The position numbers and the translations under genes were made by a program. From positions 1 through 64,000 of the forward strand of contig ML769399.1 of assembly GCA_009733575.1 (NCBI GenBank): a DNA stretch of 64,000 nucleotides. The letters are read 5' to 3'. This document shows, in pieces, positions 2,960 through 14,155 of this stretch; position 1 is the first letter of the stretch, and every line of letters begins with the position of its first letter. This DNA comes from Gymnopus androsaceus JB14. Taxonomy: Eukaryota; Basidiomycota; Agaricomycetes; Agaricales; Omphalotaceae. The notes below the pieces were generated by a model. The model saw nothing but the letters and a program-made list of their open reading frames with translations, did no database searches and was not told the origin of the DNA.

Positions 2960-2981
2960 GTTCTATAAGATATATATGTAT

Positions 2982-3061
2982 CTGGTACAGAGCAACAGAG
3001 TCAATGAGTAGGTTATTCGTATATAGTAAAATGTTCATACCTGGTACAGAGCAACAGAGTC
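2982..3061 (+). repeat. Direct repeat pair, 21 bp
   Basis: The 21-bp sequence beginning CTGGTACAGAGC occurs at 2982-3002 and again, identically, at 3041-3061. It lies in the AT-rich flank just upstream of the LTR element. No function can be assigned. Confidence 0.8.
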
Positions 3062-3152
3062 GATAGGGGTTGCTCCATCCCAGGTCAGTATGTAAATCCG
3101 ACGGAAGTAAATAGGTATGGCCGAGGCCGGTTAACTATGACAGATAGAGTCA

Positions 3153-3157
3153 TCACG
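3153..3157. repeat. Target-site duplication (TCACG), left
   Basis: TCACG precedes the 5' LTR and is repeated exactly at 13811-13815 after the 3' LTR. A 5-bp duplication is the size made by Ty3/Gypsy integrases. Confidence 0.9.
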
Positions 3158-3341
3158 TGTAACGCCCCTAATACTTATTCCATACGGTTATGTCACTCGT
3201 CACACGGTATATACATTATGTCATGTCACATGGTTCATTTTCTCTTAGCTTAACCATTACCCATACCGAATACCTTGACAATATCAGTCCAGTTGTGTTC
3301 ACTTGGGTGTAACTAAGCTCTGACCTCAACGAGGTCTTATA
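3158..3341 (+). repeat. 5' LTR
   Basis: 184 bp, starting TGTAACGCCC and ending GAGGTCTTATA. It is identical to the 3' LTR base for base, and all its CpG dinucleotides are intact in both copies. The end is TA instead of the usual CA, but the flanking duplication fixes the boundary. Confidence 0.95.
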
Positions 3342-3462
3342 CTTTTTTGAACATCTCGCAATACTCATCGTATTTGGTGTTCCGAAAAATACACAACCAC
3401 ACTCAAAGCGTAACTTCGAGCAATCGAACCCTAAACCTTATTCCCTAAAACCGTTCAAACCC

Positions 3463-6400
3463 ATGACCGAACCATCCAGTGACGCTGAGAATCCATTCGA
3501 TTCTTTCCGCAACCGCAACAATGTTGCAAACATTGGTAACAAAGCAAACTTGCATGCTTCAGAGCATACATGGCAGTTTGACCAAGGTCAAACAAAAACT
3601 CGGAGCGTTCCTTCGGAACCTCCAGGCGTGAAAACGCCTAAATCTGCACAAGCTGTTGAATTCTATCAACAGTTGGAAAAGCTAGCCCGAGTTTGTGCTG
3701 AAGCACAAAAGAATAGCATGGTCATTGCTCGAGCTTGTGCTAGTGCACAAGAAACTAGCATGAACACCACCCTTGAGTTCTCAAAACTCATGGGATTTTT
3801 TGTTGATAGCTTAGACCAAGGAGGTGAAGAAGAAGAACCTCCAAAGTCTGATGCAGGTAATACATCTGTTGCAGGTTCTGTGTCCCCCCTAATGATTAAG
3901 CCTAGGGAGGATGTGAAGAATCTGAGTGGAAACAATGGAGAGACTCCAGACGTCAACAGTGAGACGGAGTCTATACCTCCACCCATCCGAAGGAGACGAC
4001 CCGCGACTGGATTAGCTCCAAAAGCGATGGATCCTCCACACACATCTTCGGGTGGATTCAACTCCACATCGGAGACTCAAGTAGCTACACCCATTGTTCA
4101 TGCGGGTGGATTTCCAGTAAACCGTTCCATTTATGCAATGGTTGGCGATACGGCAATGGAGAACTCCATTGGTTGTCTGGGACAAGTCCCAGTTCAAGAT
4201 TACGAAGAACTTCGTCGACAGCTAGCTGCATACGACGAAGAACAAGCCAAGGTAAAGGCCCTTAAGGATAGGATCCCCGATCCTACCCCAGTAAACAAGC
4301 TACCAGGGGCGTTCAATAACTCCCCCATAATAGCTTTTTCGCATACCACTACGGTACCAAATACCGTAGCTAATACGCTGCCTGCATTCCAGGCTAACAC
4401 CAACGCTGACCCTGTTGAGGAACCTCACGTAGAGACCCAACAGGAATGGCAAAACTGAGTTGCTTTACAGCGTCTCAGAAATAGTGACCTCCGAAACTCT
4501 GGAGTGTCAACATACCCTGACCAGGGTATTGGTTTCAACATCGATGGGTATCCTGTCAACAAAGCTACAATGCCCCGCAAAGTCTGGGATAGGGGATCAG
4601 CTACTGATCCTCCCCGAGACGGCGAGGAAGTGGGAGACAATCCCACTGATCGACTAAATACAGTCGAGAATAGGTCCCATGGAGGTTCGGCTAGCCGAAA
4701 CTCCAGACACGATCCTCACGAGAGCGAGGATGGAGAGCAGGAGAGGAGGAGTTCCTCAAACATGGGGGGTGGACCTCCAGATGATGATGGAGATGATGAC
4801 GGAGATGGAAGGGATGACAGAAGTCGTAAAGGCAAAAAGCCTTCCCGTCGTCGCCGCATGCCATGGGATGATGATTCATCCTCTGGTGATTCTCCACCGT
4901 CCCCTCCCCATTCATCGCCCTCATCATCGTCCTCCGAGGACTCTTCGTCGTCGGATGACAACTGGTTTGGGACTTTTGCTTCTAACAACAATCTTGATAA
5001 GAAATCTCGTCACAAATTGCGAAAGAAAACTATCAAGAAACTCCGAGCCAAGACTGAGGACGACAAACATCGCGAGTCATGGCTCAAACATATTCTTCAT
5101 GAATACAAAAAGCAGATTAGGCACTACTGCGACCGAGAACCAGTCCAGGGAGCTGAAATGCCCAAAGGCATTAAGGTGCCTAATCCCTCCAAATTCATGG
5201 GCTCAAAAGATGTCGAAGAGTTCGACACCTGGCTACTAGCCCTGCTCCGATGGATCGTGATTTCATGATTAGTCGGAAAGGTCAACAATGACCAATGCGT
5301 CCAAATTGTAGGGAGCTACCTTGATGGTGACGCTCTACGATGGTATAATGACGAAGTCACAGGACTTCATCGTTCTCGATTGGATTGGACTTTTGAGGAA
5401 GTCATCCTGGGGTTATTTACCCGTTTTGTGCAAGCGACGACAATGCACGTCGCAGCTGAGAAATTCGAGGCTACGGTCTATGACCCTGAAAAGGGTGTCA
5501 GAGCGTATAAAGCCAAACTACAACGTTGGGGGTCGAGAATGACCCAAACACCCAACTCCTACGCCCTCAGGAAGAAATTCCTGGATGGGTTACCTACAAC
5601 TCTCATTACTAAAATGATAGAACGAGGCGCCGCACCAGATATCTCAAAATTGAGTAAAATGGTGAAGACGCTGGAGCGTATCGAGGGCAATAAAGCCCTC
5701 ACAGACTACTACATTGCGTCTAGTAAAAAGACACAAAAGGTGGAGTCACCCTACTTCAACAAAAGGTTGAAGAAAGAACGACAAAGTTGGAGCACCCAAC
5801 TTCCGCGACGCGCTGAAGAAGGCGCTACTATCAATGTTGATGGTAGACGCTTTGAATACAGGCACAAATCGGGCGAACGCCCTAGAAAGTCCTACGACAA
5901 GGACAAAGGTCATAAATATACTACCTATAAATCCAAAGTGACTACCAGTACACCTGTAGTAGTTAGTAAACCGTCCCAAGATGGGAACAATAATAATACA
6001 CCGAGTAAACTCTGCTACTCGTGCGGTAAGCCAGGTCACTTCGCAAATGACCCGAAATGCGAACGCTATGGCAAACCTCGACTATTTGCCATCCACGAAG
6101 ATGAAATCTTCGAAACCCCATCCGAATTGCCTTCTCAAGAGAAGGAAGACCAGGATAACGATCAAGTCCCCAATCTACAAGAGACAGACTCATTGGATGA
6201 TGAGAGCTCTGCCGGTGAGTGGGCAGAACTAGAAGATTATGACGAACCATACATGGGTCGTCTAGCCAGAGATGACGACTTCTTTGGCTGTATCTGCGAA
6301 ATACTTCCTCTACAGGAGGAAGACCCACTTGAAGGAGCAGATCCTCCTATTCTGATTGAGGAAGACTACAATGAAGGAATGTTTCCTTCATTAGACCCTC

Positions 6401-9400
6401 AGAATCATCCGTATAAGATGGATGATGATCGTGTAATGACAATGGAAGAAAATCCATTGTTTGGAGAGAAATCTCCAAAAGCCCATTATAGGGTTCGCAA
6501 ATCTAGCAAACCCATGGATAGACCAAATCAAGGCGATCCTAAGGACCGCCAACCAATAACTGTCCTGATGGACATCGGTGGCCAAATGGCCCTCATGCTA
6601 ATGGACTCGGGCTGCACTATAGAAGCGCTGAGCCCCGCTCACATCCAACTGACTAATGGAAAAGTCCATCAGTTGAAGGACCAGCATTCACTACAATTGG
6701 GAACCGTCGGTAGTCGTGCCAAATTCAACTACGGCACAACGATAAAAACCTCCTATGGAGGTATTATTGAAGATGTCTACTTCGACATCGTTAACATCAA
6801 CAGATATGATGCCATTGTAGGTATGTGTTTCATGCGTAAACACGGCATCCAACTCGACTTCGATAAAGGACAAGTCCTTATTCGAGGAAATCCCGCACCT
6901 ACTTTATCAGTGGGGGAGGACCACGCCGAGTTTCTAAGATGCTCGTCAATGAGACGAGATGCCCAAGCAGAAATATTCCGCAGAAAAGACTCTGAATCGA
7001 GTCAAAATTGACTATCGAATCGGGGTCCTGACGACCCCGATGTCAACAAAAACGTAACAGTCGAGACTGTTATTGATGAGGAATACCTACGAGAGGAACT
7101 GATACGTTCTGCTCGAAGTTTCCCTCAGAACTTCCCAGTCATCCTCGAAAGCTTCGACGAGGATGATCCATCTGTATCTCCAAAGATACAAAAATTCTCA
7201 CTAGACGATATTGATAAATATATCGGAATCGTCCAAGAGTTCTCTCGGGAACGATTCCCAAGAGAAGTCAAATGTCAAGCAGAGCTTAGAGCTATGCAAG
7301 ACGTGAACCAAACCGAAGCAGGAACTGCTTCCAATACGCCAACAGAAGAAGTAGCTTCTACCTCTTCACGCCCTTCAGTAACTGAAGGAAAACTACCGAA
7401 GGTCAAAGTGTCCTTCGAGAAATTCAAACCTAGGAGGAAATCTCCTCCCAGAACCAGCACAAACCGCAAGGGTTTGCACAAACGTTCCCGATCCCGGAAA
7501 TGTTCACAGCGAAGGCACAATTATGTACCTTTCCTCAAAATTCCATTGGAAGAGATTCCAATAGAGCAACTGTATTCATTCGCAGAAGATGTTGCGCCCG
7601 AAACAGAAAGACTCACGTCCATCGATGACTCGGAAAGCGTTGATTATTCAACACTTCCTGAGTCAGGCCCATATCTGGAGAGCCAAGTTCCCCAGATACG
7701 GGCTAGAATCCTTCACCAATACTCAGACATGCTGTCTGGTACACCAGAGGTACTACCTCCACTCCACGAGGTGAACCACAAAATCACCTTAATCGATGAG
7801 CAACGTAAATACCATTACTACATGCCACATTGCCCAGACGGCCTGAAGACTCAACTTAGCGATAAATTGGGTTGATATACGCGTGCACAATGGTGGATTC
7901 GTGCTAACACAGCACAAGCGGCCCCCATGTTGTGCATCCCTAAGAAAAATGGTACGTTGCGTACCATTGTTGACTATTGTCAACGAAACGATAATACGGT
8001 GAAGGATGTAACTCCTTTTCCGGATCAAGAGCATATCCGAACGGATTTCGCTCGACACAAGTATTGATCTAAACTCGATATGAGCGACGCCTACGAGCAA
8101 ATCAGAAATGAGCCCGCAGACGTCTGGAAGTCCGCATTCGTGAACGTATTCGGTATGTTCGTTAGCAATGTTATGGTACAAGGGGACTGCAATGCCCCCG
8201 CAACTTTCCAGAGAGTTATGACTCTCACATTCCAAGATGTCATTGGGAGATATGTCCATGTATATCTCGACAACATCTTCATCTTTAGTGACACTCTTGA
8301 AGAACACGAGCGTCATATTAAGGTCGTTCTTGAACGCCTTCGGAAACAGGCTTTATACCTCAAAGCCGAAAAATGTGAATTATTCACAAAATCAGTGGAT
8401 TGCCTAGGTCATCTGGTAGATGACCATGGCATACATGCGGACAAGGACAAAATGTCCAAAATCCGCGACTGGCGCACACCGCGCGACTTCAACGATGTAC
8501 AGCGATTTCTTGGACTAGTCCAATATGTCGCTCCGTACATGCCCAATGTAACTAATTACACCGGGCCCCTCAGCATCATATGTAGGAACAACGTTCCCTT
8601 CATATGGATGCCTTCACACCAGTCATACTTCGAGCACATCAAACGACTCGCAGTATCAGCCCCAATACTGCAACCAATAGACCCCCGACACGAAGATCCA
8701 ATATGGATCATTTGCGACGCATCTGTGTCGGGAGTAGGCTGTATGTACGGCCAGGGCCCTACGTGGCAAACATGCAGGCCAGCCGGCTTCATGTCTAAAA
8801 AGTTCACTGCAGCTCAACACAACTACCGGGTGTTCGAGCTGGAAACTCTGGCTATTCTGGAAGCTCTCCTCAAGTGGGAAGATAAGCTTCTGGGATATCG
8901 AGTTCATGTGGTCACTGACCACAAAGCATTGGAGTTCTTTTAAACTCAATGCAAATTATCGAGCTGACAAGCTCGATGGATGGAATACCTATCCAGGTTC
9001 GACTTTGATATACGATATATCAAAGGAATCACAAACAAAGTTGCAGACGCATTATCGCGTTACTACGAATCCAACACGTCCGAGGACGTGCATGGTGTCC
9101 ATGAATATGTCAATGCAGACATTCACATTGACAAAGATCACGACAACCTACCCATAGGTTGTCTCGAAGAACTAGCCAATGATCACCTCATGGCTTTGCG
9201 ATGCTCTGAGCGTCTCCAAAACAAACAGCATCCAGTCCGCAAACCTGTAGAGGCCCGAGACTGTGAAGCTGCTGAACTTCGAGAAAACGTCAAAGAACCG
9301 GAACCTATGGTTCCAACTCCTACTGAAACTGAAGAAGATATTACTATCTTCTACTCTCATCCCCAGGGGGAAAATCCCATGGATATTCACCAGGAACGAG

Positions 9401-10911
9401 ATACATTCATCGAGGATGTGAAGCATTTATATGCCTCCGATCCTCTATTCGCTAAAGTGTTTCTCCATCCAGAGAAACATCCTGCATTCTCGATAGAGAA
9501 TGATTTAGTATTCTCCACAAATCGTGGAGGAGAACAAGTCCTATGTATTCCCCGAGGAAAATCTTCCAGCGGGAAAAGTCTATATGGCATTATTGCCGAA
9601 CAAGCTCACGAAGTGCTAGGGCACTTCGGTGGTCAGCGAACGTCTGACTACGTCCGTTGTTGGTACTGGTGGCCATGCGTAAATGGCCACATCGAGGAGT
9701 TCTGTAAGACATGCGAGACATGCCAACAGGCGAAAACCTCGAATAAGAAACCAGCGGGTGAACTTCACCCACTTCCGATCCCCACCAAACCTTGGGAATC
9801 GATAGGAATGGACTTTATTGGTCCCTTCCCTGAATCCCAAGGATACAATTACCTCTGGGTGGTAGTCTGTAGACTTACATCCAGGGTACACATTATCCCA
9901 GTGACTACGTCAACTACCACGGCGCAGTTGTCGTGGTTATTTGTTAAGGAAATAGTGAGACTACATGGTCTCCCAAAATCCATAGTCTCGGATAGAGACT
10001 CCAAATTCACATCTCACTGGTGGCGAGAAGTTCACCGTATCCTAGGAGCAAAGCTCCTAATGTCCACGTCTTTCCATCCGCAAATGGATGGCGCTACTGA
10101 ACGAATAAATCGTTCCATCGGGCAGATACTCAGGTCAACTGTAGATGCCGACCAGAGGAACTGGGTCAAGAAATGCCCAATGCTCGAGTTCGCAATAAAC
10201 TCGAGTATCAGCGAATCCACGGGATTCACACCTTTCGAATTGGACGGAGGATACATGCCCTCCATGATTTGCGAATACCGGGTAACATCTGATGTACCCC
10301 CTGGCGTTCGCGAATTTGCAGACAAAGCTCTGCAAAATCTCATGGATGCCCACGATTCCATCATAGAATCGCAGACAATCCAGAAACACTATGCCAATAA
10401 ACGACGTAGTAAAGAACCTGAGTTGAAGGTAGACTCGTTGGTATACCTATCAACCAAAAACCTATCTTTACCAAAAGGCAGAGCTACGAAGCTGCTGCCC
10501 AAATTCATTGGACCTTATCCAATAGTTGAGGCCAATTCGATTACATTGAATTATAGAATCGGTCTTCCAACCGAACTAGCAAAACGTGGAATTCACGACA
10601 ACTTCCACGTTAGTCTGCTAAGGAGACATCATCCTAACGATGATGCTCTCTTCCCGCTAAGATCGATGGCTGAACCATACGATTTTGGAGAACCATCCGA
10701 CATCGAATGGCTTGTCAATGAAATTACCAGTCATCACTGGGATGGCCGCAAACTTATGTTCCACATAAAGTGGAATCTCGGTGATGTTACCACCGAACCT
10801 TACAATACTTGTAAGGACTTAACAGCTCTAGATAGATATCTGGAACTTCAAGGAGTTTCCGACTGGCGGAAACTATCACGCGACGACCCTGTGAGAGAAA
10901 TGACGCGTTAA
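3463..10911 (+). pseudogene. gag-pol polyprotein of the LTR element, seven internal stops
   Basis: One reading frame runs through the whole span with internal stops at 4456 (TGA), 5266 (TGA), 7009 (TGA), 7873 (TGA), 8065 (TGA), 8941 (TAA) and 8965 (TGA), and no frame change. Visible parts: Gag to about 6000; a zinc knuckle at 6013-6060 with spacing C-x2-C-x4-H-x6-C (two residues longer than usual); aspartic protease with MDSGC near 6600; reverse transcriptase 7800-8350, whose catalytic box reads YLDN instead of YxDD; RNase H with CDASVSGVG near 8716 and TDHKALEFF near 8917; integrase with an H2C2 zinc site (9607-9723) and D, D, E residues near 9810, 9990 and 10100; and a chromodomain-like end at 10690-10860. 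Gag and Pol share one frame. The stop positions fit loss of CGA arginine codons. Confidence 0.92.
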
Positions 10912-11009
10912 CGCGTACGCGAAAAAACACCGCCATGAGTCACGTGGTCACCGATCTCACTGAATCTCGATTCAATTGAGAATTTTCTCAGAGTTCTTAA
11001 GTTTAAACT

Positions 11010-13388
11010 TTGACCATGGCCGAACGTGAAAATGAGAACACAAAAAATAACGAAGACCAGATCATGGCTGGGATTCAAAATGCCACCAGTGGCACTACGA
11101 ACAACGGTGGACCTAGTCCACATTTCAATCCAATAAGGAGTGGCGTTGCGCCACAACCACAATTCCAATTCCCCCAATTCCCCCAATTCCCGTCCAATCC
11201 TTTTTCCTCGAACTCTGGTTTCAACAACCAGGGCTTTCCTACGCAAAACCAAGGATTCCATCCTTCAGGCCTTGCGTTTGGTTCAATCCAGCCTCCAGCT
11301 AGTTCGAACCCCGCTTTTGCAGCTGGGTACAACCTAGCACCAATGACTGGCTCCGCCACGTCATCCTTCTCGCAAATGTCGCCGTTTGGGCAAGGCCCAA
11401 ACCCGACTATGCAACCTCTACACCCTGGAGGCTCCACAGCGAGCAGATGGGTTTTCAATCCGAACTTGAGTACCATGCTACACACACGGAACACTTGTTC
11501 TACATGCGAGGCAACTCGCGCACACGTAGTGTCAGCATTCGCTGACAACAATGTTTCTTTCACCGCTGCCAACCAGGAGCGTGTCGATCACATTCGACAG
11601 ACTGCCCTGGGTGGCAACTCCAATGGAGAAGACGTCACGTCTCTCAAATGACAAATTGGGGAATTAAACACCCAACTTAATGTCGAGCGGGACGCATACG
11701 ACAGAATCCGTGACAATTTTGACGAGGCCAAACATGACCTCGAACGCATTCGAAAAGAACGCGATAGTACTCGCACTGAACGCGACACGTTCAAATCAGA
11801 AGCTGAACAGCTCTGAGAAGAAATCTCGCAACTACAAAGTCGCAACCAGGAACTTGCTAGTCAAGTTCCCAAAGCAAACTCCCCAGCCCACCTAGGAAAG
11901 CGCAAGCGGACCGAGGCTAGGCCAACCACATCCACTGCGGTTACTTCGTCCCAGCACGAAGACACAGAGATGGCAAACCTCTCTGATGACGAATCTGTCA
12001 ACATCATCGTGGGGACAGTTTCCCAACCTACGCCTAGGTTCACGCCGATCGTGTGTAACCCAGTAACTCCAGAGGACCTGCCTGACGGCGGGTACCGTAC
12101 AAAGGAGGACTTCATCCTCTATGGAAATGATGCTGCGGATGCTCGACACAACGAGCAATTGGGTGTCCCTATCTCACACGGGGGAGGGATTGACCACATC
12201 AAGAAAGCTGCTAATATTACTACGGTTCTTGAATATATCGGGCTGATGCGGACATTGCAAAACATCAATGACTCCGGTAACAACTTTGAATGGAGGCACT
12301 GGTTCACCTTCACGGCAGCCAGGGATCGACACCGACAGGCAGTGAATACTGCAGTAGACCAGCGGAACGACCTCGATCATACCGCCATCGCAAACTTCTT
12401 CAAACCACGATTTGTAGGATACACCTATGACCAGAATGCGGCGAAGAAGGATAAAGGAAAGGGTCGGGCACCACCCAAAACAGAATTTGAAGACCCATCA
12501 TCCTATACGATAGGGAGTCTACCAACTGCCTCGATGGGAGGTCAGTCATCCTGGAAGGTGGAACCTTCCATGGATAATACACAAGGGGAGTCGTCCAGTA
12601 CGACGACAAGGTCGGGAATGCGACCCCCCACCCACAACGACACGCCTGAGTACTGGGCGCAGTACCACTTCTTTTACCCCACCAAAAATGGTGGTATTCA
12701 ACGTGATGCGAACAATCACGTCTCACTATGAAGCATACGAGGACGCTTCCTCACTACTCATAGAGCTCCGAAAATGCCACCAGGAACGCCCGCGTCAGAG
12801 CGGAACCGTTTCATGCTCCTATCCACTGAGTTGTTCGCAACTCCAGGACTATATGCCCAGTTGATTGCTTCAACGGGTTCAACAATCGCCTCGGGAGTCA
12901 CGGTGTCCCGATTCCCGGCACCAGACGTCTGTAACGCTATGCTGAATAGCGTAGCAGCGTTTTATGCCTCTCAAGGCATTACGATTTTGATGGGAGAAGA
13001 CACCTCAGTCTTTGCCCTTGAATGGATCACTACTTTCCACTCTAGGGATAGTACTTCAAACAACAATGCTTGTGCAGCACGAGATCGAATTGAGGCATTG
13101 TTGTCCAGGAGTGTGGTACCTCCAGGACTAAACGAAAATGTCTGGACCGCAGATGGATTGGTCATCCGTCCTAGCATTCCAGTGCCGGGAACGGTGTACT
13201 TCCCCGTTCAACCCCCACCAGCCCCGGACAATAGTCTATCTTACGGCAGCCCACTTCACGAGGGAGAGTCGAGTAGTGGTGCAGCGGTAGACTCTGGCTC
13301 CTCCTCCTCTAATCCCACGCCCGTACAGGCCAACACGTCCGATAACACCCTCATGGAGGGTGTAAATGATCATTCACCACTGATGTGA
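11010..13388 (+). pseudogene. Second long frame downstream of pol, three internal stops
   Basis: A single frame of about 790 codons starts at an ATG roughly 100 bp after the pol stop and reaches almost to the 3' end of the element, interrupted by TGA at 11649, 11814 and 12729. The N-terminal 200 residues are rich in Asn, Gln, Pro, Phe and Gly (repeated PQFPQFP-like units); a CSTC pair lies near 11500; about 11650-11870 encodes a Glu/Arg-rich heptad-like coiled coil followed by a basic KRKR patch; the rest is unrecognised, with a compact C-terminal part (12774-13180) and a Ser-rich tail. It is not envelope-like: no signal peptide or membrane segment is visible. Ty3/Gypsy elements normally lack an ORF here, so its role (perhaps a capsid or nucleic-acid-binding accessory protein) is unknown. 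Confidence 0.8.
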
Positions 13389-13393
13389 GCTTC

Positions 13394-13563
13394 GGAATGA
13401 ACTTCAACGCGCTGTTGAAGTTGATTCCAAAATGTTGATGTCCACTACACGCTGTTGTGGATGTCGATACTACTATTTGCTTTGAGTTTCATGACACGCT
13501 GTCATGGACCTCATTATTCGACTATCCAATATATTGGTCAGGTGTTCACGATACGCTATCGTG
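13394..13563 (+). repeat. Four spaced hairpins with a CGC loop
   Basis: Four inverted repeats lie in a row: 13394-13428 (inner arms ACTTCAAC/GTTGAAGT), 13441-13461 (TCCAC and ACA arms with one T-T mismatch), 13490-13506 (CATGACA/TGTCATG) and 13547-13563 (CACGATA/TATCGTG). The last three have CGC at the apex, the first has GCGCT. The stem sequences differ while the loop is kept, which suggests a structure conserved by compensating changes. The sites lie in the non-coding interval between the second ORF and the 3' LTR, so they would be near the 3' end of the genomic RNA. Confidence 0.7.
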
Positions 13564-13614
13564 GATGCTTGGTCTTCAGAATAATATATTTGATTGATCC
13601 TGTGGATTCAATCT

Positions 13615-13626
13615 GGCCGGGGAGGG
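13615..13626 (+). promoter_or_regulatory. Polypurine tract
   Basis: GGCCGGGGAGGG ends exactly at the first base of the 3' LTR. The purine run GGGGAGGG is in the expected place and of the expected type for plus-strand DNA priming in LTR retrotransposons. Confidence 0.75.
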
Positions 13627-13810
13627 TGTAACGCCCCTAATACTTATTCCATACGGTTATGTCACTCGTCACACGGTATATACATTATGTCATGTCACAT
13701 GGTTCATTTTCTCTTAGCTTAACCATTACCCATACCGAATACCTTGACAATATCAGTCCAGTTGTGTTCACTTGGGTGTAACTAAGCTCTGACCTCAACG
13801 AGGTCTTATA
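13627..13810 (+). repeat. 3' LTR
   Basis: 184 bp, identical to the 5' LTR. It is followed immediately by the second TCACG target duplication (13811-13815). Confidence 0.95.
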
Positions 13811-13815
13811 TCACG

Positions 13816-14155
13816 GATGTCTTTCAAATCTCAATCAAGACAACTCAAGGACAGCTCAAAGAAAGTTAGCTGCTACGCTGCCTTTACCAGTAATCAGATG
13901 AAGGTTCTTAATGCAGGTATGCCAGGACTCACTAAATTTATTGAACTAAACTAATATTCAGACAAAACAGAGACTCCCAAAGGACAACCCCACCAAAAAG
14001 TCAACCAACTGTTGAAGATGATTGCAGAAAAGTGGGGCAAGATGACAGAGGAGGAGAGGGTTGCAGCAACAGAAGAGGATTTAGTGGCTCTCACCATCAT
14101 AATGAATGCAAACAGGGAGGCTGTAGTTATGGCTGGCTGCCCCTGTAAAAAGTGC
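13816..14155 (+). pseudogene. Older repeat-borne ORF fragment (3' part)
   Basis: From about 13955 this encodes a Lys/Glu-rich helical peptide with KWGKMTEEERVA and then a CPCKKC cysteine cluster. The frame is cut by the hAT element at 14164 and appears to continue past it at 15679 for about 25 codons. I read it as part of the same older repeat as 2621-2959. No start codon or full domain is visible, and the family is not identified with confidence. Confidence 0.4.

What the first reader, a model, noticed from the sequence alone, without database searches (positions are those of the whole stretch)
3158..13810. Retrotransposon with identical LTRs but ten premature stops, nine of them TGA
The two 184-bp LTRs are identical and the TSD is perfect, so this copy inserted recently. 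Yet its two long frames contain ten stops (4456, 5266, 7009, 7873, 8065, 8941, 8965, 11649, 11814, 12729) and no frameshift over 10 kb. Nine are TGA, at positions where CGA arginine codons are plausible (for example in the segments before SKLDMSDAYEQ and before QARWMEYLS). The RT catalytic box YLDN also fits a CpG transition (GACGAC to GACAAC). The LTR CpGs are untouched. The simplest explanation is that an already dead, CpG-deaminated copy was mobilised in trans, with reverse transcription regenerating equal LTRs.
Basis: partly seen in the sequence, partly recalled or inferred. Interest (0 to 1): 0.75.

Follow-up and report, generated by a model that had tools for sequence, protein, structure and literature searches.

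The report
Retrotransposon with a programmed readthrough stop
A mobile element in a small mushroom looked full of accidental stop signals; nine look like ordinary decay, but one is probably a deliberate leaky stop that lets the element make a little of its copying enzymes behind a lot of its coat and protease.

Summary
The ten stops are not one class. The TGA at 7009 is TGA in all 11 relatives compared, always UGA-CUA, a known leaky context, with a stem 8 nt downstream (two compensated pairs). It sits between protease and reverse transcriptase. No in-frame ATG follows before 7294 in 12 copies, yet 7012-7290 of the window copy diverges from relatives as coding DNA. Two more distant families here have UGA-CGG at that junction, and Gag-protease proteins of other Agaricales mostly end there. 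Best reading: programmed readthrough, Gag-PR | RT-RH-IN; inferred, not measured. The other eight TGA face mostly arginine in relatives and fit CpG deamination on both strands; the TAA faces leucine in 10 of 10. Trans-mobilisation of a dead copy is possible but weakly supported: a rough clock gives P about 0.035-0.07 for unchanged LTRs, no sibling copy was found, and stops are not shared preferentially by close relatives. Separately, a covarying hairpin array lies just before the 3' LTR.

The parts
3153..3157 (.). target site duplication, left copy (TCACG)
3158..3341 (+). 5' LTR, 184 bp, TG...TA ends, 6 CpG
3342..3375 (+). leader segment next to the 5' LTR, nearly unchanged in the 7 relatives that cover it; no TGG-type primer site and no clear self-priming match
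3463..7011 (+). Gag-protease frame from its ATG (zinc knuckle; DSGCT protease motif), ended by the conserved TGA at 7009; two decay stops inside (4456, 5266)
   Evidence: protease motif by eye and by homologues
7009..7011 (+). conserved UGA followed by CUA: proposed programmed readthrough stop
7020..7040 (+). stem-loop beginning 8 nt after the UGA (7 core pairs, two compensated)
7055..7072 (+). second conserved hairpin downstream (7 pairs, nearly invariant, so no covariation test)
7012..10911 (+). Pol frame: RT, RNase H, integrase; decay stops at 7873, 8065, 8941, 8965; first in-frame ATG at 7294
11016..13388 (+). ORF3 from its ATG, no Pfam match; decay stops at 11649, 11814, 12729
13436..13570 (+). 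array of three hairpins with a common ACGCT apex (13436-13466, 13483-13513, 13540-13570)
13619..13626 (+). polypurine tract-like run (GGGGAGGG) next to the 3' LTR
13627..13810 (+). 3' LTR, identical to the 5' LTR
13811..13815 (.). target site duplication, right copy (TCACG)

Best explanation
The element belongs to an Agaricales Ty3/gypsy lineage that expresses Pol by programmed stop-codon readthrough. Ribosomes translate Gag and protease and mostly stop at UGA-CUA (7009); a minority, helped by the context and by the stem 8 nt downstream, insert an amino acid and go on in the same frame through RT, RNase H and integrase. Gag and protease would thus be made in excess over the enzymes. The other eight TGA, and the lost second Asp of the RT box, are decay of methylated CpG in a copy that is now dead; the TAA is an unrelated mutation. 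Shown: conservation of the stop and its context, the stem, the coding character of the DNA after the stop, the protein ends in other species. Inferred: that ribosomes pass the stop, how often, what is inserted, and that CpG methylation is the cause of the decay.
For: TGA at 7009 in 12 of 12 copies and TGACTA in all; the 11 relatives have UGA-CUAG. 0 of the 8 other TGA are followed by CTA or CGG. Stem 98.8% paired over its 7 pairs with two compensated pairs; fold z -3.9 for window 7009-7048 and -4.95 for C87. No in-frame ATG before 7294 in 12 of 12. In 7012-7290 the window differs from C87 at 13/9/33 sites by codon position (p 1.2e-4), against 7/6/7 in the pol-ORF3 spacer, and the third position leads against all 11 relatives (27-35 sites; the relatives share ancestry, so these are not independent). 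In 7057-7290, 21 silent and 13 replacing codon differences in frame, 5/30 and 2/32 in shifted frames. Families at C78 and C141 have UGA-CGG at the same junction, with 8 silent and 4 replacing differences in the first 22 codons after it. In other fungi, 15 of the 18 hits that carry the protease motif (of 25 hits) end 120-151 aa after it, and 1 of the 120 best-listed Pol homologues (of 814) carries a piece of protease. UGA CU(A) readthrough was shown by reporters in the fungus Ustilago maydis (PMC4207609, passages), and UGA followed by CUA or CGG is a recognised class (PMC4132726, passages).
Against: No translation data. The stem rests on two compensated pairs, each in one sequence, and shuffles reached the observed covariation in 18 of 500. 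The C78 stem is not more stable than its shuffles (z 0.27; C141 -2.65), and one decay stop (8965) also has a stable fold after it (z -3.77). Pairs of relatives show no third-position excess over the first in 7012-7290 (summed 493/242/477; C87-C164 7/3/5), as expected if most of their differences arose after death, but not support either. The first 15 codons after the stop vary freely in protein (2 silent, 8 replacing, window against C87). C141 has another in-frame stop 33 codons before the junction. Pfam does not recognise the protease in the window piece itself. The Mycena protein P0028 joins a protease end to RT. DNA of other species could not be read, and ends of predicted proteins can be errors of gene models. 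The Pol search admitted only proteins of about 489-1555 aa, so full fused polyproteins were not eligible. In Tca2, a UGA junction alone did not give readthrough in yeast (PMC2194720, abstract).
Confidence: 0.75

Rival explanations
1. All ten stops are mutations of an already dead, CpG-deaminated copy that was mobilised in trans; reverse transcription then made the LTRs equal. The part about the nine decay stops could hold even if 7009 is a readthrough stop.
For: Nine decay stops against zero LTR changes; expected LTR changes 4.2 (95% 1.7-9.1), P(0) 0.035. The window LTRs keep 12 CpG together, against 5-8 in the six relatives with both LTRs.
Against: The 7009 stop is in every relative compared. 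No dead sibling was found. In the six relatives with both LTRs, stop fraction and LTR changes rise roughly together, as after insertion. Stops are not shared preferentially by close relatives. On four relatives P(0) is 0.07.
Confidence: 0.2
2. The nine decay stops arose after insertion, and the LTRs stayed equal by chance or by gene conversion between them.
For: Same CpG signature and similar stop numbers in relatives that do have diverged LTRs; the LTR pair holds only 12 CpG.
Against: P(0) only 0.035-0.07.
Confidence: 0.6
3. The stop at 7009 is removed by splicing, so that Gag-Pol comes from a spliced RNA.
For: 22 frame-keeping GT-AG pairs spanning the stop have both ends kept in at least 9 of 12 copies, including donors GTAGGT at 6817 and GTATGT at 6821 in the window copy.
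Against: 11 of the 22 (donors 6817, 6821, 6836) would remove the conserved protease end; the other 11 start at GTCCTT, GTGGGG, GTTTCT, GTCAAT or GTCAAA, poor donors by general knowledge. The AG at 7014 is missing in the window copy. By eye no acceptor lies at a shared place in C78 and C141. Splicing would not explain UGA-CUA and UGA-CGG.
Confidence: 0.1
4. Pol is made from its own start, by internal initiation at the ATG at 7294 or from a separate transcript.
For: The ATG at 7294 is in 12 of 12 copies; in Tca2 a promoter lies in the gag-pol junction (PMC2194720, abstract).
Against: DNA between the stop and 7294 evolves as coding sequence in the Pol frame in the window copy; in C78 and C141 the protein is conserved almost from the stop onwards.
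Confidence: 0.1

Closest known systems
Fission-yeast Ty3/gypsy elements Tj1, Tcry1, Tosmo1-3
   Same: In-frame TGA followed by CTA or CTG; in Tj1 the Pol frame lacks an AUG and the stop is needed for transposition (PMC10085805 and PMC4600332, passages).
   Different: There the stop separates Gag from PR-RT-IN. Here protease lies before the stop, so it would be made at Gag level. This element also has an ORF3 and a stem after the stop.
Viral UGA-CUA / UGA-CGG readthrough signals (alphaviruses and others)
   Same: Same stop and context (class described in PMC4132726, passages); here too a stem after a short spacer.
   Different: Host, genes and proteins are unrelated; no readthrough measured here.
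Ustilago maydis and animal metabolic genes with UGA CU(A) readthrough
   Same: Same core motif, shown by reporters in a fungus (PMC4207609, passages).
   Different: There it adds a peroxisomal tag; here a whole polymerase polyprotein.
Candida albicans Tca2
   Same: UGA between gag and pol with a possible pseudoknot after it (PMC2194720, abstract).
   Different: The Tca2 junction alone did not direct readthrough in S. cerevisiae; other element group (copia type, recalled).
Retroviruses: murine leukaemia virus; alpharetroviruses
   Same: Stop readthrough helped by a 3' RNA structure makes Gag-Pol in the first (PMC4132726, passages); protease on the Gag side of the recoding site in the second (recalled, from no call).
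   Different: UAG before protease in the first, frameshifting in the second (both recalled).
CpG-type decay of transposons in basidiomycetes
   Same: C-to-T mutation at CpG (PMC4352252, passages).
   Different: Classical RIP of ascomycetes prefers CpA; not seen here.

Membership tests
Ty3/gypsy LTR retrotransposon | Domain order protease, RT, RNase H, integrase | tested here: met
   RVT_1, RT_RNaseH, Integrase_H2C2, rve, SH3_Tf2-1 in order. Protease upstream: motif by eye, RVP_2 above cut-off in homologues P0021 and P0024 aligned to it; no Pfam protease match in the window piece itself
Ty3/gypsy LTR retrotransposon | LTRs with TG...TA ends, 5-bp duplication, polypurine tract | tested here: met
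Ty3/gypsy LTR retrotransposon | Recognisable primer binding site | tested here: inconclusive
   No TGG site after the 5' LTR (read); longest complement to the LTR 6 nt, duplex no better than shuffles (60 of 200 as low)
Programmed readthrough of the UGA-CUA/CGG class | UGA followed by CUA or CGG, conserved | tested here: met
   12 of 12 copies UGA-CUA; two further families UGA-CGG
Programmed readthrough of the UGA-CUA/CGG class | 3' RNA structure (frequent, not universal) | tested here: inconclusive
   Stem in 12 copies with two compensated pairs (18 of 500 shuffles as high) and z about -4 in the window; C141 z -2.65, C78 z 0.27
Programmed readthrough of the UGA-CUA/CGG class | Downstream frame is translated without its own start | tested here: met
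   By divergence pattern of the window copy; pairs of the decayed relatives are uninformative
Programmed readthrough of the UGA-CUA/CGG class | Measured extension product | not testable with these tools
   needs a reporter, ribosome profiling or peptides
Ascomycete-type RIP | CpA preference of C-to-T | tested here: not met
   NCA sites 0.05-0.07 against NCG 0.28-0.41
5-methyl-CpG decay | CpG to TpG and CpA on both strands | tested here: met
   e.g. C164-C645: 188 of 278 differences are CpG transitions, 88 C/T and 100 G/A; TGA 81 and CAA 115 at CGA-type sites. Methylation itself not testable here
Strand-biased cDNA editing | Excess on one strand | tested here: not met

The most novel reading that the evidence does not exclude
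A large Agaricales Ty3/gypsy clade separates Gag-protease from RT-RNase H-integrase by a leaky UGA-CUA or UGA-CGG stop, so that protease is made at Gag level; and its RNAs also carry an array of covarying ACGCT-apex hairpins before the 3' LTR, a candidate binding site for Gag or another partner. I saw no listing that describes the readthrough in agaric elements nor the hairpins (one broad search, 8 of 97 papers listed); only open-licence papers are held.
Probability: 0.6. Interest if true: 0.65.

Novelty: new variant of a known kind. Interest (0 to 1): 0.55.

Why it matters
Automatic annotation, and here a careful reader, takes in-frame stops in transposons as death. In this clade one stop is probably part of the machine, and many predicted proteins from Agaricales end there. 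The arrangement differs from the fission-yeast readthrough elements in putting protease on the abundant side, which bears on how such particles balance structural and enzymatic proteins. The rest is a clean example of CpG-only decay in an agaric, with a rough check of stops against LTR age.

Tried and rejected
Sequencing error as the cause of the stops: rejected for 7009 (12 of 12 copies) and unlikely for the rest, since relatives show the same CpG spectrum; read data were not available. Strand-biased editing during reverse transcription: rejected. Ascomycete-type RIP: rejected. Shared stops as proof of inherited death: 28 shared pairs within and 30 between subgroups; re-dealing gave means 21.6 (148 of 2000 at least as high) and 18.9 (8 of 2000); the window copy shares 8 against 7.7 expected. 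The excess between subgroups suggests hotspots rather than descent. Private-change tally: too few CpG columns are unanimous (17 for the window copy) to be useful; the pairwise tally was used instead. Scans of viral contigs with the RT piece and with A2 found no relative. The loose pattern search gave fewer hits than its control (104 against 148) and was dropped. Self-priming and tRNA primer: no clear site; no tRNA gene in the window by the bacterial-mode finder. Rfam: no match in 3000-14000 at gathering score. Only copies with the RT region were aligned; solo LTRs and copies without it (for example C87:69483-71306) were not. In one search, 18 of the 26 hairpins were aligned; the 8 dropped lie outside the 3' region (shuffled sequence gave 5.8 on average).
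Full report
What was checked. The element is as described: LTRs 3158-3341 and 13627-13810 identical over 184 bp, TCACG on both sides, ten in-frame stops at the listed places, no frameshift. Pfam places RT, RNase H and integrase in order after the stop at 7009 and a zinc knuckle before it. The protease is read from its DSGCT motif before the stop; Pfam does not recognise it in the window piece, but two aligned homologues that end at the same point score as RVP_2. The window's own genome is held (83 Mb, 934 contigs). Contig lengths of 223702 and 242804 (C87, C76) equal those of proteins named Gymnopus androsaceus JB14, an agaric of the Omphalotaceae.

Relatives. Besides the window copy, 11 copies with the RT region were fetched and aligned piecewise. 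The window copy is the only one of its subfamily found: its best full-length LTR match is 83% (a 97-bp piece reaches 91%), the RT region 88%, the longest 3' match 74%. Ten relatives fall in two subgroups, 92-98% alike inside each in three regions compared; C219 is further out. Six have both LTRs, with 1 to 11 substitutions between them; their flanks, read by eye, show six different 5-bp duplications, one of them (C133) with a mismatch.

One stop is not decay. At 7009 all 11 relatives read TGA, followed by CTA in all 12 copies; the relatives have CTAG. None of the eight other TGA in the window copy is followed by CTA or CGG. Eight bases after the UGA a stem begins; its seven core pairs hold in 98.8% of cells, with two compensated pairs, one in the window copy and one in C219; shuffles reached the same covariation in 18 of 500, so this alone is modest. 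The fold is more stable than its shuffles (z -3.9 and -4.3 for the window, -4.95 for C87, -2.5 for C219). Among the eight decay TGA z runs from 0.6 to -3.8, so stability alone does not single out 7009.

The DNA after that stop is translated. None of the 12 copies has an in-frame ATG before 7294 (on window coordinates), yet in 7012-7290 the window copy differs from C87 at 13, 9 and 33 sites by codon position (p 1.2e-4), against 7, 6 and 7 in the pol-ORF3 spacer. Against each of the 11 relatives the third position leads, 27 to 35 sites. From 7057 to 7290 there are 21 silent and 13 replacing codon differences in the Pol frame, 5/30 and 2/32 in shifted frames. The first 15 codons are freer (2 silent, 8 replacing), where the stem lies. 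Pairs of relatives do not show the pattern (493, 242 and 477 summed), which fits differences gathered mostly after death but adds no support. Ribosomes must enter this stretch from upstream, which leaves readthrough, splicing or a non-AUG start; readthrough fits the stop context best.

Other families and species. In the same genome, families at C78 and C141 (63% and 55-76% identical in the RT pieces) have a stop at the same junction, here UGA-CGG, with the protein conserved almost from the stop on (8 silent, 4 replacing in 22 codons). C141 has a further stop 33 codons earlier, where C78 has none. C539 and C181 report the same open-frame length for protease and RT matches (1265 and 1092 aa), so they seem to keep both in one frame and the split looks like a feature of one lineage. 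Of 25 homologues of the Gag-protease piece, 18 hold the protease motif or a close variant, and 15 of these end 120-151 aa after it; they come from Marasmius, Lentinula, Collybiopsis, Pleurotus and unnamed sources. The other three are P0004 (marked partial) and P0007 and P0015, which end earlier. The seven without the motif are mostly G. androsaceus gene models that lack this part. Of the 120 Pol homologues listed (of 814), one, P0028 of Mycena chlorophos, has part of a protease. The length filter of that search kept out longer fused polyproteins. DNA of these species could not be read, so the stop codon used there is unknown.

Decay. The other eight TGA face Arg in 52, Gln in 10, Cys in 5, Ser in 1 and a stop in 8 of 76 readable cells. 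Between relatives, C/T differences reach 0.28-0.41 per site before G and 0.05-0.10 elsewhere. At 64 CGA-type sites, TGA stands in 81 cells and CAA in 115 across 12 copies, so both strands are hit. This is the CpG pattern reported for basidiomycete transposons (PMC4352252, passages). Overall CpG of the window element is ordinary (observed/expected 0.89, rest of the window 0.90); the relatives run from 1.04 (C32) to 0.16 (C219).

Was a dead copy mobilised? For the six relatives with both LTRs, stop fraction and LTR changes were used as a joint clock; it predicts 4.2 LTR changes for the window copy (95% 1.7-9.1) and P(0) of 0.035, or 3.3 and 0.07 on the four less decayed. The window LTRs are also richer in CpG than the relatives' (12 against 5-8). 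Against it, no sibling was found in this assembly, stops are not preferentially shared by close relatives, and an assembly in 934 contigs may have lost or merged young copies. I leave trans-mobilisation at about one in five.

Known parallels. Tj1 of fission yeast and its kin have TGA with CTA or CTG between Gag and PR-RT-IN, and Tj1 needs the stop to transpose (PMC10085805, PMC4600332; passages). UGA CU(A) readthrough was shown by reporters in Ustilago maydis (PMC4207609; passages). UGA followed by CUA or CGG is a named class (PMC4132726; passages). What differs here is the place of the protease. Four searches of the held papers for readthrough in fungal or agaric retrotransposons listed none on agarics; that covers open-licence papers only, and I read listings, not all papers.

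A second structure. Between ORF3 and the polypurine tract lie three hairpins, each 31 nt, with a common ACGCT apex and stems of different sequence. Eighteen such hairpins (16 distinct) from the window and eight relatives show changes on both sides at 10 of 14 pairs, 28 cells against 9.8 in shuffles, 0 of 500 as high. They were chosen by having at least 8 pairs, which favours paired cells; 8 other hits of the same scan, outside the 3' region, were left out. A ninth relative (C133) had none. A pattern of one form of it occurs 57 times in the genome with at most one mismatch, against 0 for the control. It has no Rfam match. A binding site used in packaging or RNA handling is a guess.

Noticed in passing
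13436-13466, 13483-13513, 13540-13570: Tandem hairpins with a common ACGCT apex and strongly covarying stems just before the 3' LTR; also in 8 of the 9 relatives whose 3' ends were read, and 57 pattern matches in the genome against 0 for the control.
   Followed up: partly
11016-13388: ORF3 with no Pfam match and a charged, coiled-coil-like stretch around 11652-11860 (by eye); its middle piece has four homologues, three named G. androsaceus and one unnamed. Function unknown.
   Followed up: partly
3342-3375: 34-nt leader nearly unchanged in the 7 relatives that cover it although the DNA after it differs, without an ordinary tRNA-type primer site or self-priming match.
   Followed up: partly
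13402-13420: A further inverted repeat with CGC in its loop directly before the three-hairpin array.
   Followed up: no
2979-3064: Two 27-nt copies, 93% alike, 59 nt apart, just left of the insertion.
   Followed up: no
L062, L063 (C219): One relative is extremely CpG-poor (observed/expected 0.16) with 8 TGA and 10 CAA at 30 CGA-type sites.
   Followed up: no
window 9040-12000 against relatives: Members of the two subgroups (C219 left out) are 90.7-94.2% alike across subgroups in 7555-9029 but only 76.4-79.5% in 9040-12000, which suggests exchange of 3' parts between lineages.
   Followed up: no
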